Of a stretch of DNA of 38,737 nt, positions 8,946-21,817 are shown piece by piece (position 1 is the stretch's first letter; each line of letters starts with the position of its first letter). This DNA is from Pseudomonadota bacterium (GTDB lineage Bacteria; Desulfobacterota; Desulfobulbia; Desulfobulbales; Desulfocapsaceae): assembly GCA_023412495.1 (NCBI GenBank), contig JAEYNP010000002.1, forward strand, positions 1 through 38,737, written 5' to 3'. The position numbers and the translations under genes were made by a program. Below the pieces are notes generated by a model. It searched no databases. It saw only the letters and a program-made list of their open reading frames with translations, and had not been told where the DNA came from.

Positions 8946-10016
8946 ATGGCAGACACAGTAAACAATGCTCTGGACCCGCAGCTTGATCGGCGCGGATTCC
9001 TCAAGGGATGCACGATGGCTGCAGCCGCTTTAGGACTGTCCGAGGCGATGATCCCCAAACTCGTCGAGGCCGCCGCCACGGCAGAGCGACCCAGGGTCAT
9101 CTGGTTGCATTTCCAGGAATGCACCGGCTGCACCGAGAGTTTGCTCCGGTCATCGCATCCGGATCTGGCCCGCCTGCTTCTCGACATCATTTCCCTCGAC
9201 TACCACGAGACAGTCATGGCGGCAGCCGGTCATCAGGCCGAGCAGAATCTGCATGAAACAGTTTCAAAACACCCCTTCCTCCTCGTCGTGGAAGGCGGAA
9301 TCCCCACCAAGGATGGTGGAATCTATTGTAAAATCGCAGGCAAAACCGCCGTGGATATCCTTGCGGAAGTTGCCCCCAAGGCCTCGGCGATCATCGCCAT
9401 CGGAACCTGTGCAACCTTCGGCGGCGTGCAGGCCGCCGCGCCCAATCCCACAGGTTCCGTCGGCGTGCAGGATCTCGTCAAAGGCAAGCCGATCGTCAAC
9501 ATCTCCGGCTGCCCGCCAAACCCGATTTCCTTCCTCGGCACCATTCTCCACTATCTGACCTTCAAAAGACTGCCGGCTCTCGATCATCTGAACCGTCCGC
9601 TCTTCGCCTACGGCCGCAGGATCCATGACCATTGCGAGCGCCGTCCGCACTTCGACGAAGGCCGTTTCGTCGAGACCTACGGCGATCAGGCCCATAAACT
9701 CGGCTACTGTCTCTACAAAGTCGGCTGCAAGGGCCCCGAGACCTTCGCCAACTGTCCTGCAGTCCGCTTCAACGACGTCGCCGTATGGCCGGTCAGCGTC
9801 GGTCACGGCTGCGCGGGCTGCACCGAGCCCAATTTCTGGGATACCATGACGCCCTTCTATGAGAGACTGCCGAACGTCAAGATCCCCGGCACCGGCATCA
9901 TCGAGGATGCGGACAAGGTCGGCAAGACCATTCTCGGCGCCACCGCCGCGGCAGTCGGTATCCATGCTGCGGTCGGCATCGGCAAGCGGTTGATCAAGGG
10001 CAAGGACAAGGAATAA
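8946..10016 (+). CDS. hyaA: [NiFe] hydrogenase small subunit, Tat-exported
   Basis: A 356-residue electron-transfer subunit of a group 1 membrane-bound uptake hydrogenase. A twin-arginine signal is visible (RRGFLK, residues 15-20, then a hydrophobic Ala-rich stretch). Proximal-cluster ligands are C59 and C62 (ECTGCTES), C155 (GTCATFGG) and C189 (SGCPPNP). Distal-cluster ligands are H227, C230, C255 and C261, with the spacing of the D. gigas enzyme. Medial-cluster ligands are C270, C289 and C292. The two extra cysteines of oxygen-tolerant enzymes are replaced by Gly (CTGCT and FGGVQ), so a standard, oxygen-sensitive proximal cluster is expected. A weakly hydrophobic helix before the basic C-terminus may be the anchor. 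GGAGG sits five bases before the ATG. It heads the operon. Confidence 0.95.
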   Translation: MADTVNNALDPQLDRRGFLKGCTMAAAALGLSEAMIPKLVEAAATAERPRVIWLHFQECTGCTESLLRSSHPDLARLLLDIISLDYHETVMAAAGHQAEQNLHETVSKHPFLLVVEGGIPTKDGGIYCKIAGKTAVDILAEVAPKASAIIAIGTCATFGGVQAAAPNPTGSVGVQDLVKGKPIVNISGCPPNPISFLGTILHYLTFKRLPALDHLNRPLFAYGRRIHDHCERRPHFDEGRFVETYGDQAHKLGYCLYKVGCKGPETFANCPAVRFNDVAVWPVSVGHGCAGCTEPNFWDTMTPFYERLPNVKIPGTGIIEDADKVGKTILGATAAAVGIHAAVGIGKRLIKGKDKE

Positions 10017-19066: not shown

Positions 19067-19156
19067 ACATCTGGGTGCATTCGTCTGGTAAGTGAGTACC
19101 TGGGTACGAAGTTCGATAAGGGATCCATCTTTGATGGATGGATTGTCGAAATCCGG

Positions 19157-19248
19157 ATCGGTATCGCTATCGAAATTGAGATGAGGAAAGCAATAAAAAT
19201 CCGCTGACCGTAACGGATGTCTGATTCGATTTCGATACCGATACCGAT
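19157..19248. repeat. Imperfect inverted repeat downstream of hypB
   Basis: The 23-bp stretch at 19157-19179 (starting ATCGGTATCGCTATCG) and the reverse complement of 19226-19248 differ at only two positions. Both are built of the simple unit TATCG/GAAAT. The loop is 46 bp and AT-rich. No T-tract follows, so it is not an obvious terminator. Confidence 0.55.
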
Positions 19249-19348
19249 TTCGATGCACTGCACAGGTATGAAATCACGTATTCCACGTTGATCTGATCTC
19301 ATGCGAAAACGGGAAGTGTCCCTAATTTTTCAGCATAAGGAGAGACTG

Positions 19349-19866: not shown

Positions 19867-19994
19867 GAATATCCTCGCCCCCCGCTTTTGCATTGACTAG
19901 GTCGCTTGCTCATCAGCCATTTTCCTGGCAACCACCGCTTCTGGACTGCGGCCTGCCAAACGGTGATCGTACGAAAAACAGGTTAGGATCTAGA

Positions 19995-20034
19995 TTGCCT
20001 GCCGACAAAGACAATATCCGGCAGGCAACTGTTT
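19995..20034. terminator. Hairpin between convergent genes, possible terminator
   Basis: A perfect 10-bp stem: TTGCCTGCCG (19995-20004) pairs with CGGCAGGCAA (20019-20028). CTGTTTTATAA follows on the plus strand. It sits just past the stop of the minus-strand 113-residue gene and 220 bp past the lipoprotein gene, so it could serve either direction. Confidence 0.5.
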
Positions 20035-20375
20035 TATAACGCTTTTTCAATCGTCGCAATGAAATCCTTGAGGTAGGAAAGCTCAGCATCAACAGTCATC
20101 CTGCCGAACTCTGTCTTGGCCTCGATTTCTCGGACAACCTCATCCCGCGTCATCGGTTTACCGCTAATTGATTGGACTGTGTAATCAGGACCTTGGCGGT
20201 TACGCTCAAGAACAAGATTGACTTTCTCTTCTTCTGTCAACGCATCAAGAGAGACAGGAGTTTTCTTGCCGGAGACGATCTCATCAAAGCTGATAAATCG
20301 TTTCAATTTGGGGTCATAACACAACGGTTTATACCGGTCAGGACCCTGTACATCCGGTAATGATGATCGGGGCAT
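20034..20375 (-). CDS. Hypothetical partner protein sharing a module with the adjacent peptidase
   Basis: A 113-residue, charged, soluble protein with no signal peptide and no family I recognise. Its residues 42-112 align without gaps over about 58 positions to residues 55-112 of the peptidase-like protein encoded just upstream. Shared positions include the ER-x5-PD start, M-[ST]-[KR]-[DE]-EV, then T..G...V.AE..Y, with many conservative changes. This suggests a common binding or adaptor module and a physical or regulatory link. The ATG at 20375 has AAGGAG nine bases upstream and lies 13 bp after the peptidase stop, so the two are almost certainly co-translated. An upstream extension to 20531 would run inside the peptidase gene and is rejected. 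Confidence 0.75.
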   Translation of the reverse strand: MPRSSLPDVQGPDRYKPLCYDPKLKRFISFDEIVSGKKTPVSLDALTEEEKVNLVLERNRQGPDYTVQSISGKPMTRDEVVREIEAKTEFGRMTVDAELSYLKDFIATIEKAL

Positions 20376-20388
20376 ATGCGTAGGCTCC

Positions 20389-21585
20389 TTAATTTGCGGG
20401 TTCCACTTCCGAGGGTTCAAACTCCAGTTCACTCTCCGGTGCAGCAAATAACTCCTCGGCCGACTCAAGCCGTGGCACACGAATCGCAACATACGGGTAG
20501 AGCTTGGTGCTCTTCGAGCCATACTTGCCATCTATTACGGGGGTCATAAAATAATTGCGGTCATGGGTCAGCCAGGTAGCCGTCGCGGTTCCTGCCACAC
20601 CAGGCTTTGCAATACAGGCGTTGTAAGTGCGAATAGTGGCCTCGTGCGCTTCTTGCACAGTCGCGCCTCCTGCTAGCATGATATCGTAGGTGCTGTCGCA
20701 TTGCCAGAAGAGTTCCATATCATCGAAAGGAGTGGCTGGTTGGTCGTAGATAAAGGTGAAGTTTTCATAATAACCGGCATAGGCCTTAGCCCCATTTCTG
20801 ATGAGATCAGGACCGAGTTGTTTTGCGGTCTGGCAACTCAGCAGGTGGATGGTTTTTCCTTTTACCTCTTCAGGATTGTAGCTGCCAACTTTCAGAATTG
20901 GACTGCCAAGATGCCCCGTAAAGGTAGTTGGACTACCATGCCCGATACCTGAAATATAGGTAACCCTGTTTTTTTTGAGCGCGTCAACAAATTGAAATCT
21001 GTCATCATTAATATCTTTGAGAACAACAACATTGAACCCTCTTTTTGTGAATGCAGGATGGACGTGCTTGAACCTGTATGGAGTTGCCTTCTGGGTCACA
21101 TCGTCAGTGGTGTTCTCGCAGAAGAGCGCCGTGTTTCTCAGGAACGTCCATCGTTGCCACCAGTCCTTTGGAATCCAGTGGTAATACGGCGGGATTGGCT
21201 CAGGTTCAATATCAGGGATTTTCGGTTTTGCCGGTATCGGCTCAGGATTATTCAGGTTCTGCATCAGCTCCTGACAATAGACCATCTCAGCTCGGACGAT
21301 ATCCTGACCTATGAGCGTTTGGTTCTTGACTGAGTCAATGACCTCCTCCTTGGACATACTCCCATGTTCGAAGATACCTAGTCGAAAATCCGGCTCCGGT
21401 ATATAACGTTCCACCGTCAGCTCAATCTGCAGCTTGTCTTCCATGCTAAACAAGTTGGCCATGGAAAGGCTGGGGTTCTGGGCTACATCTGCCAGTGTGG
21501 ATTTTTTCCCATCTGCTGCGATTGTTACAGGTTTCTTTACAGCATATTCAAACATTTCCAGATTTTTTACTTTCACCTTTTTCAT
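20389..21585 (-). CDS. Putative clan CD cysteine peptidase (caspase/gingipain/CHAT-like)
   Basis: A 398-residue soluble protein. Residues 208-217 form a hydrophobic strand ending in Gly-His-Gly (VTYISGIGHG, H216). Residues 244-254 form a second strand ending in a cysteine (KTIHLLSCQTA, C251), followed by LGPDLIRNGAKAYAGY. This His-Gly / strand-Cys pair 35 residues apart is the catalytic layout of clan CD peptidases (gingipain C25, caspases, CHAT). The N-terminal ~112 residues hold a module shared with the downstream 113-residue protein; a Pro-rich linker (about 113-134) joins it to the peptidase domain. The tail is acidic. There is no signal peptide, so it is cytoplasmic. The ATG at 21585 has GGAGG upstream. 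The substrate is unknown, and activity is inferred. Confidence 0.75.
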   Translation of the reverse strand: MKKVKVKNLEMFEYAVKKPVTIAADGKKSTLADVAQNPSLSMANLFSMEDKLQIELTVERYIPEPDFRLGIFEHGSMSKEEVIDSVKNQTLIGQDIVRAEMVYCQELMQNLNNPEPIPAKPKIPDIEPEPIPPYYHWIPKDWWQRWTFLRNTALFCENTTDDVTQKATPYRFKHVHPAFTKRGFNVVVLKDINDDRFQFVDALKKNRVTYISGIGHGSPTTFTGHLGSPILKVGSYNPEEVKGKTIHLLSCQTAKQLGPDLIRNGAKAYAGYYENFTFIYDQPATPFDDMELFWQCDSTYDIMLAGGATVQEAHEATIRTYNACIAKPGVAGTATATWLTHDRNYFMTPVIDGKYGSKSTKLYPYVAIRVPRLESAEELFAAPESELEFEPSEVEPAN

Positions 21586-21712
21586 AACATGCTCCTCCCG
21601 ATTTAGTTGACATGCATTTTCCGGATTCATCAGTATTTCCGGTGAACCCGGCTCCCTTAGGAGCCTTCATGAACAATGATTCCGAGGTGGATTTGCAAAG
21701 TTTGCATTTCAT
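21548..21712 (-). CDS. Small Cys-rich ORF upstream of the peptidase gene
   Basis: A 54-residue frame with a CKLC pair at residues 3-6, two more cysteines near positions 34 and 42, and many Lys, Gly and Ser. AAGGTG lies just before the ATG. It ends 38 bp inside the peptidase gene in another frame, an overlap that would allow coupling. It could be a tiny zinc-binding regulator, a leader peptide or a chance frame. I recognise no family. Confidence 0.35.
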   Translation of the reverse strand: MKCKLCKSTSESLFMKAPKGAGFTGNTDESGKCMSTKSGGACYEKGESKKSGNV

Positions 21713-21788
21713 GTCACCTTCTGCCGTCAATCACGCCCCCCGCCCGAAGGGCTAACTTCCGCCCTGTTTAACTGTTTACGGAATCGGG

Positions 21789-21817
21789 ATTACAGATAGA
21801 TCACAGATAGATTACAA
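21789..21817 (-). promoter_or_regulatory. Candidate promoter with embedded 11-bp direct repeats
   Basis: On the minus strand TTGTAA (21817-21812), 17 bases, then TGTAAT (21794-21789) as -10. The region between and around them is a tandem direct repeat of ACAGATAGATC / ACAGATAGATT (21792-21802 and 21803-21813, plus strand), a spacing of about one helical turn. It lies about 80 bp upstream of the small ORF and is well placed to drive and control the peptidase cassette. Confidence 0.45.

What the first reader, a model, noticed from the sequence alone, without database searches (positions are those of the whole stretch)
20034..21817. Compact cassette: caspase/gingipain-like protein, adaptor-like partner, own promoter
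An AT-rich minus-strand unit encodes a soluble protein with a clear clan CD dyad (H216 in GIGHG, C251 in LLSCQTA), a co-translated 113-residue partner, and possibly a tiny Cys-rich ORF. It sits in a zone ringed by REP-like repeats between conserved operons. Peptidases of this clan are known effectors in bacterial conflict and regulated cell-death systems, usually paired with a recognition or adaptor module. I know of no described system with this exact make-up; a defence, toxin-type or signalling role is inference.
Basis: partly seen in the sequence, partly recalled or inferred. Interest (0 to 1): 0.72.

Follow-up and report, generated by a model that had tools for sequence, protein, structure and literature searches.

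The report
Caspase-like enzyme with separate regulator twin
Two neighbouring genes, found together in bacteria of many phyla and in an archaeon, encode an unnamed caspase-like enzyme and a separate small protein related to the enzyme's own first domain, which suggests a self-contained protease with its own dedicated partner.

Summary
The observation largely holds. The window encodes a 398-aa protein A (20389-21585, minus) and a 113-aa protein B (20034-20375, minus); B's ribosome site overlaps A's stop codon. A matched no named family in Pfam, NCBIfam, PADLOC or PDB. His216 and Cys251 are identical in 248 of 248 sequences compared, and A's core resembles clan CD families C25 and C14, but weakly. 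The main new result: B is a stand-alone paralogue of A's own N-terminal domain. A free copy follows the enzyme gene in 19 of 20 related loci; the twentieth contig ends there. A second branch (8 of 8 loci) carries the two domains as separate genes. Fused, free and split copies form three clades, and A and B evolved in parallel. In 15 of 15 genomes the domain was found nowhere else. In one genus A and the N-domain occur in the same 3 of 59 genomes, and filled and empty sites exist. Best reading: a mobile two-gene cysteine-peptidase module whose free domain binds and probably restrains the enzyme. A defence role, promoter, REP ring and Cys-rich ORF gained no support. No fold could be predicted.

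The parts
20389..21585 (-). Gene A: 398-aa N-domain + His/Cys (clan CD-like) peptidase-type domain; no hydrophobic segment of transmembrane type
   Evidence: ORF; homologues; alignment; hydropathy
21244..21585 (-). N-domain of A (about residues 1-114), homologous to protein B
21406..21408 (-). Arg60 of A, equivalent to Arg58 of B; the only residue identical in all rows of all three N-domain clades
   Evidence: 138/138 fused rows (some proteins appear twice), 24/24 free, 8/8 split; 119 of 120 with one gap
20476..21138 (-). Clan CD-like catalytic domain (about residues 150-370, boundary approximate)
   Evidence: conservation; profile comparison
20938..20940 (-). His216, predicted catalytic (GIGHG)
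   Evidence: H in 120/120 fused and 128/128 split sequences
20833..20835 (-). Cys251, predicted nucleophile (LLSCQTA)
   Evidence: C in 120/120 fused and 128/128 split sequences
21103..21117 (-). Glu157-Asp161, conserved acidic positions; candidate S1-pocket acids for a basic P1 residue (inference)
   Evidence: position 157: E 120/120 fused, D 128/128 split; position 161: D 117/120 fused, E or D 128/128 split
20034..20375 (-). Gene B: 113-aa stand-alone N-domain (paralogue of A residues about 18-114)
21592..21599 (-). Ribosome-binding site of A (GGGAGGAG)
   Evidence: sequence
20385..20391 (-). Ribosome-binding site of B (TAAGGAG), overlapping the stop codon of A
   Evidence: sequence
19995..20028 (-). 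Hairpin just after B, terminator-like but without a strong U tract; not reported by the terminator scan
   Evidence: fold of 19975-20040: z-score -4.69

Best explanation
A and B form a self-contained, horizontally moving two-gene module. A is a cytosolic cysteine endopeptidase of the caspase/gingipain type (dyad His216/Cys251), probably cutting after a basic residue. Its N-terminal domain of about 115 residues acts as a regulatory prodomain, and B is a dedicated second copy of that domain that binds A in a fixed complex and restrains it, possibly by pairing with the N-domain of A and/or by placing the invariant Arg (R60 in A, R58 in B) in the S1 pocket, as the prodomain of gingipain RgpB does. 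A trigger that removes or cleaves the N-domains frees the peptidase to cut a host or intruder protein. SHOWN: architecture, paralogy of B with the N-domain, linkage, parallel evolution, invariance of the dyad, presence or absence as a unit. INFERRED: peptidase activity, basic specificity, complex formation, inhibition, trigger, biological role.
For: His216/Cys251 identical in 248/248. Best profile matches C25 (0/100 shuffles) and C14 (1/100); controls 65/100 and 5/100. B homologous to A's N-domain. Linkage: free B-like gene after A in 19 of 20 fused-type loci (L008 ends at the contig edge); separate N then catalytic gene in 8 of 8 split-type loci. Tree: fused 19, free 19 and split 8 are each one side of a branch; distances of A and of B correlate at r=0.82, 0 of 2000 permutations as high. 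N-domain only at the module in 15/15 genomes at E<=0.01; in 59 genomes of one genus N-domain and A occur in the same 3. Filled and empty versions of one site. One Arg invariant across the N-domain clades, acidic residues at 157 and 161. The RgpB prodomain puts an Arg in the S1 pocket, bound by Asp163 of the first helix (PMC4357240, passages).
Against: No fold was computed. Profile similarity to C25/C14 is weak (hhalign probability 3.6% and 1.6%; the best C25 shuffle scores 24.3 against 24.8), and these matches cover the His region, not the Cys. No catalytic or binding data. Arg60 may be purely structural. The split branch has only one N-domain per module, so a second copy is not always needed. 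The distance correlation shows joint inheritance, which would arise without contact. I saw nothing in the neighbourhood that names a target or trigger (the last two show 25 of 61 and 25 of 222 families).
Confidence: 0.45

Rival explanations
1. B is an obligatory activating or folding subunit: N and N' form a heterodimer that holds the catalytic domain in its active shape. The enzyme then has a housekeeping or stress role, not a death role.
For: Pairing of one free copy with each fused gene and parallel evolution; free and fused N-domains kept apart as two clades; weak resemblance of about residues 72-98 of B to the N-terminus of HU proteins, 0 of 100 shuffles as good against 8, 39 and 40 of 100 for C25, C14 and response regulators (that this part of HU dimerises is recalled); a predicted cis-regulatory RNA (DUF805b) before the gene in two Bacteroidota loci.
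Against: The HU resemblance spans about 24 columns with probability 11%. Patchy presence (A in 3 of 59 genomes of one genus; N-domain in 1 of 149 genomes of the Acidobacteriota sample) does not fit an essential housekeeping role.
Confidence: 0.25
2. An effector-associated-domain (EAD) type conflict system: the N-domain recruits the caspase-like effector by homotypic contact, B being the adaptor.
For: Small domain without catalytic residues at the N-terminus of a caspase-like effector with a second copy in the next gene, which is the EAD pattern (PMC7159879, PMC8195603, passages); split branch found in cyanobacteria, Acidobacteriota and a Poribacterium.
Against: The free copy's own fused partner is its closest fused relative in only 2 of 19 loci, whereas EADs of adjacent genes are described as closest to each other. 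No further copies in 15 of 15 genomes. No third gene shared across the fused-type loci beyond close relatives.
Confidence: 0.12
3. B is the substrate: the peptidase cuts B (and perhaps its own linker) and a fragment carries the signal.
For: Dedicated partner, invariant Arg, variable Pro-rich linker in A.
Against: B is conserved over nearly its whole length and shares its domain with A; no conserved basic site in an exposed tail stood out in the alignments, though none was searched for systematically.
Confidence: 0.12
4. The His/Cys domain is catalytic but not a peptidase (for example a ligase or transpeptidase), or is a non-catalytic scaffold.
For: No fold or activity data; weak profile matches.
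Against: A non-catalytic scaffold would hardly keep His and Cys in 248 of 248.
Confidence: 0.06

Closest known systems
Peptidase family C25 (gingipains), clan CD
   Same: His-Gly motif followed by the Cys; best profile match of those tried; N-terminal extra domain; conserved acidic residues ahead of the His, as RgpB has its P1-binding Asp163 in the first helix (PMC4357240, passages; positional equivalence is inference)
   Different: No Pfam C25 hit at E<=1 in 50 members; no sign of secretion; a second copy of the N-domain encoded in trans. The gingipain prodomain itself was not compared.
Peptidase family C14 (caspases, metacaspases, orthocaspases)
   Same: His-Gly motif after a hydrophobic strand; second-best profile match
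   Different: No Pfam C14 hit at E<=1 in 50 members; Ser-Cys rather than the usual Ala-Cys before the nucleophile (usual form recalled), in conserved surroundings of its own (HLLSCQTAxxLGPD)
Effector-associated domain (EAD) systems, including the EACC1-caspase pair
   Same: Small domain on a caspase-like effector with a copy in the adjacent gene
   Different: Adjacent copies not each other's closest relatives; no extra copies in 15 genomes; no shared core gene; no transmembrane-type segment as in EACC1
Toxin-antitoxin modules
   Same: Two coupled genes, patchy, one small partner
   Different: Partner is a paralogue of the effector's own domain; no toxicity data
YabG, proposed as a new clan CD family
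   Same: Precedent for a clan CD-type His-Cys enzyme without sequence similarity to other families of the clan (PMC12445089, passages)
   Different: Not compared directly here; no YabG model among the 17 Pfam families reported for 50 members

Membership tests
Clan CD cysteine peptidases | Conserved His-Gly and Cys dyad in that order | tested here: met
   H216, G217 and C251 identical in 248/248
Clan CD cysteine peptidases | Caspase-hemoglobinase fold | not testable with these tools
   Structure prediction switched off; only weak profile support
Clan CD cysteine peptidases | Peptide-bond cleavage after a specific P1 residue | not testable with these tools
   Needs biochemistry; acidic 157/161 suggest basic P1, inference
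Peptidase C25 | Match over the Pfam cut-off | tested here: not met
   No PF01364 hit at E<=1 in 50 members
Peptidase C25 | Profile similarity above chance | tested here: inconclusive
   hhalign score 24.8 exceeds 100 of 100 shuffles, but the best shuffle is 24.3 and the probability 3.6%
Peptidase C14 | Match over the Pfam cut-off | tested here: not met
   No PF00656 hit at E<=1 in 50 members
Peptidase C14 | Profile similarity above chance | tested here: inconclusive
   1 of 100 shuffles as good; probability 1.6%
CHAT | Profile similarity above chance | tested here: not met
   9 of 100 shuffles as good; no PF12770 hit at E<=1 in 50 members
Peptidase C11 | Profile similarity above chance | tested here: not met
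   9 of 100 shuffles as good, with only 4 C11 sequences in the alignment
EAD systems | Small terminal domain without catalytic residues on an effector, second copy in an adjacent gene | tested here: met
EAD systems | Adjacent copies closest to each other | tested here: not met
   own fused partner ranks first in 2 of 19 loci; free and fused are separate clades
EAD systems | One copy fused to a core component (VMAP, iSTAND, GAP1, Ubl) | tested here: not met
   N-domain only at the module in 15/15 genomes; no third gene shared across the fused-type loci beyond close relatives
Toxin-antitoxin module | One gene toxic, the other neutralising | not testable with these tools
   needs expression
Toxin-antitoxin module | Two-gene unit, patchy distribution, gained or lost as a unit | tested here: met
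   A and N-domain in the same 3 of 59 genomes of one genus; empty and filled site

The most novel reading that the evidence does not exclude
A previously undescribed family of clan CD-type peptidases, spread across bacterial phyla and at least one archaeon as a two-gene unit, controlled by a dedicated trans-acting copy of its own prodomain: a zymogen whose inhibitor was duplicated into a separate gene and has co-evolved with the enzyme ever since.
Probability: 0.35. Interest if true: 0.8.

Novelty: new variant of a known kind. Interest (0 to 1): 0.6.

Why it matters
Regulated proteases of the caspase type are central to cell death and immunity, and how their restraint evolved is an open question. 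Here the regulatory domain exists in two arrangements (fused plus a free copy, or fully split) that can be compared directly, in a unit of only two genes that is naturally present or absent at one site in culturable Algoriphagus. That would make prodomain-in-trans control testable in laboratory bacteria. It would also give an identity to a family of at least several hundred proteins (561 at E<=0.01 alone) that in the listings seen are unnamed or 'hypothetical'.

Tried and rejected
Family searches: A matched nothing in NCBIfam, PDB (profile of 50 members, nothing below E 0.31) or PADLOC, and nothing credible in Pfam. B matched nothing credible. Eight split-type catalytic proteins matched nothing in Pfam. 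Rfam gave nothing in the window. PHROGs was not searched. PF07477 (Glyco_hydro_67C) matches 14 of 50 members, best E 0.00021, and A at 13.9 bits against a cut-off of 27; I took it for chance without a further test. Plasmid search: no match. Viral scan with A alone: nothing; with the alignment: one locus, L028.

Profile comparisons included some family sequences read from the wrong strand (my extraction guessed the strand from stop codons, 12 of 30 HU rows were dropped and others may have been wrong). One search repeats them with recorded strands and only it is relied on. C25 was 0/100, 1/60 and 0/100; C14 was 15/100, 5/60 and 1/100. One search also used a smaller alignment of A's family.

A conserved third gene was sought: in the fused-type loci none is shared beyond close relatives (only ORFs of 90 aa or more). 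In three split-type loci (L021, L023, L026) a 578-634-aa protein follows; it has no Pfam match at E<=0.001 and was not found as a shared neighbour in the other five, so I did not make it part of the system. The idea that B is a RiPP-type precursor was dropped on sight of the alignment: no variable core tail.

Dropped rows: one search used 19 loci including the window; L008 (contig ends) and L019 (A truncated) were left out. One search used the genomes of 15 of 28 loci. Of 134 flanking ORFs listed (mechanical ORFs, some perhaps not genes), 111 were scanned, whose tables show 25 of 61 and 25 of 222 families. One search aligned 50 of the 120 listed proteins; all 120. A fourth Algoriphagus with the pair (L016) was not among the 59 genomes drawn.

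Literature: 8 of 10 searches; none of the titles and abstracts listed describes this pair. That is limited to the open-licence library. Read by passages only: PMC8195603, PMC7159879, PMC4357240, PMC12445089; no paper was read whole.

Full report
WHAT IS THERE. On the minus strand the window carries two coupled genes between a hydrogenase-maturation (hyp) gene cluster with a DUF3617 gene on one side and pta on the other. Gene A (20389-21585) encodes 398 residues, gene B (20034-20375) 113. Both have good ribosome sites; that of B overlaps the stop codon of A. A strong hairpin follows B (z-score -4.69). The pair has 47.8% GC against 58.8% for the window outside 20034-21817; the only 2 of 186 windows of that size that are as low both overlap the pair. 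That would fit a recent arrival. The claimed promoter, repeat ring and Cys-rich ORF gained no support.

THE FAMILY OF A. A search of 5.8 billion proteins gave 135 at E<=0.01 (the window's own included); of the 120 listed none has a precomputed Pfam domain or a functional name. His216 and Cys251 are identical in all 120. A scan of GTDB genome contigs gave 27 loci, whose records name Bathyarchaeota, Bacteroidota, Acidobacteriota, Zixiibacteriota, Planctomycetota, Chloroflexota, Verrucomicrobiota, Cyanobacteriota and others. A further search with the catalytic domains of the divergent branch gave 561 at E<=0.01 (7996 candidates scored, a capped set); the 120 listed again have no Pfam domain. Over 120 fused-type and 128 split-type sequences (120 listed plus 8 loci), His216, Gly217 and Cys251 are identical in 248 of 248; position 157 is acidic in 248 (E in 120/120, D in 128/128) and position 161 in 245.

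WHICH CLASS OF ENZYME. No Pfam, NCBIfam or PDB entry matches convincingly. I built alignments of C25 (25 sequences), CHAT (30), C14 (28) and C11 (4) from genomes, plus response regulators (24) and HU proteins (30) as controls, and compared profiles against 100 column-shuffled nulls each. C25 scored 24.8 (0 of 100 nulls as high, best null 24.3), C14 20.4 (1 of 100), CHAT 17.0 (9), C11 18.2 (9), HU 15.5 (5), response regulators 11.8 (65). So CHAT and C11 do no better than the HU control. The C25 and C14 matches align the His-Gly motifs but do not reach the Cys. This is weak, though consistent with clan CD and closest to C25/C14. A fold could not be predicted. Earlier runs of this test had some wrongly oriented sequences and are superseded.

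LINKAGE. Of 20 loci of the fused type besides the window (L001-L019, L028), 19 have a free N-domain gene downstream on the same strand, 10-576 nt after A; in L008 the contig stops at the end of A, L019 lacks the start of A, and A is frameshifted in L017. In 8 of 8 loci of the divergent branch (L020-L027) the N-domain is a separate gene immediately upstream of a catalytic-domain-only gene; by the mechanical ORF starts the two overlap in L020, L022, L025 and L026. The loci were found through A, so this is linkage seen from A's side. The domains thus occur fused plus free, or fully split.

EVOLUTION. In a tree of 46 N-domains, fused (19), free (19) and split (8) copies are each one side of a supported branch (99/98, 97/90, 100/99). 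The free copy's own fused partner is its nearest fused relative in only 2 of 19 loci. Distances between A proteins and between B proteins correlate at r=0.82 over 19 loci, 0 of 2000 permutations as high. The duplication therefore seems older than the spread, and the pair has travelled together across phyla. This measures joint inheritance; it does not prove contact.

A SELF-CONTAINED UNIT. In 15 of 15 genomes scanned whole (many of them incomplete MAGs), N-domain matches at E<=0.01 lie only at the module; one genome (G015) has two split modules, and G013 has a third, broken N fragment inside the module. In 59 genomes of the genus of L014 (Algoriphagus), A is found in 3 and the N-domain in the same 3. 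In L014 and L015 the pair sits between a 270-aa and a 219-aa gene. Of six genomes without A whose neighbourhood I fetched, three (L233, L235, L238) have those two genes side by side, with at most 99 nt between the matches; in the other three the 270-aa gene was not found in the stretch fetched, and in one of them (L237) neither was the 219-aa gene. In Algoriphagus the GC of the pair equals its surroundings, so low GC is not general. In the Acidobacteriota sample only the reference genome has the domain (1 of 149).

CONTEXT. No third gene is shared across fused-type loci beyond close relatives. Among 111 flanking proteins the commonest Pfam family is the protein kinase (4), and there are 2 phage integrases; of 61 PADLOC models with a match 25 are shown, 23 of them PD-T4-6, 4 members each. 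What is shown gives no defence-island signal; the other 36 models were not seen. One IMG/VR contig (L028) has the pair near a terminase gene, the only viral hit; GC jumps from 35.7% to 59.7% between the two halves.

HOW IT MAY WORK. One residue is identical in every row of all three N-domain clades: Arg60 of A, Arg58 of B (119 of 120 with one gap). In gingipain RgpB the prodomain inserts an Arg into the S1 pocket, where Asp163 of the first helix binds it (PMC4357240, passages). A has conserved acidic residues ahead of the His that could play that part. I therefore propose, as inference, that the N-domain is a prodomain-like inhibitor and B its trans-acting twin. An activating heterodimer is the main rival; a short, weak resemblance of the N-domain to the start of HU proteins (0 of 100 nulls, about 24 columns) would fit it.

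WHAT IT IS NOT, ON THE TESTS MADE. It shows the outward pattern of effector-associated domains but not two features of theirs (closest adjacent copies; a copy on a core component), as described in PMC7159879 and PMC8195603 (passages). It is not a member of C25, C14 or CHAT by Pfam criteria.

VERDICT. Real, conserved, and not described in the libraries and paper listings searched. The make-up is new as far as those searches go; the biochemical role is open.

Noticed in passing
L003:9947-9980 and L008:5877-5910: A DUF805b cis-regulatory RNA (RF02914, above the gathering score) lies just upstream of gene A in these two Bacteroidota loci, of seven Bacteroidota loci searched; a paper search for the RNA's name found nothing.
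   Followed up: partly
L014, L015, L016, about 25-55 nt upstream of position 10001: A conserved leader (GGATAGCCGAAACCG...AGTAGGC) looks similar by eye to the DUF805b matches, but Rfam does not report it in these loci at the gathering score nor in L014 at E<=10.
   Followed up: partly
L028:1-5569: The pair occurs on a contig catalogued as viral, near a terminase gene and a gene that looks HNH-like by eye; GC is 35.7% in 1-2300 and 59.7% after it: a phage-borne copy or a chimeric contig.
   Followed up: partly
L021:11092-12828, L023:10419-12323, L026:10685-12490: A conserved 578-634-aa protein without a Pfam match at E<=0.001 follows the split-type pair in three Acidobacteriota loci.
   Followed up: partly
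L009:11308-11541: A broken third N-domain fragment between gene A and gene B.
   Followed up: no
L017:9998-11149: Gene A is interrupted by a frameshift in this delta-proteobacterial MAG while the free N-domain ORF is open.
   Followed up: no
window 19146-19253: A 29-nt inverted repeat (arms 50 nt apart, 86% complementary) between hypB and the DUF3617 gene.
   Followed up: no
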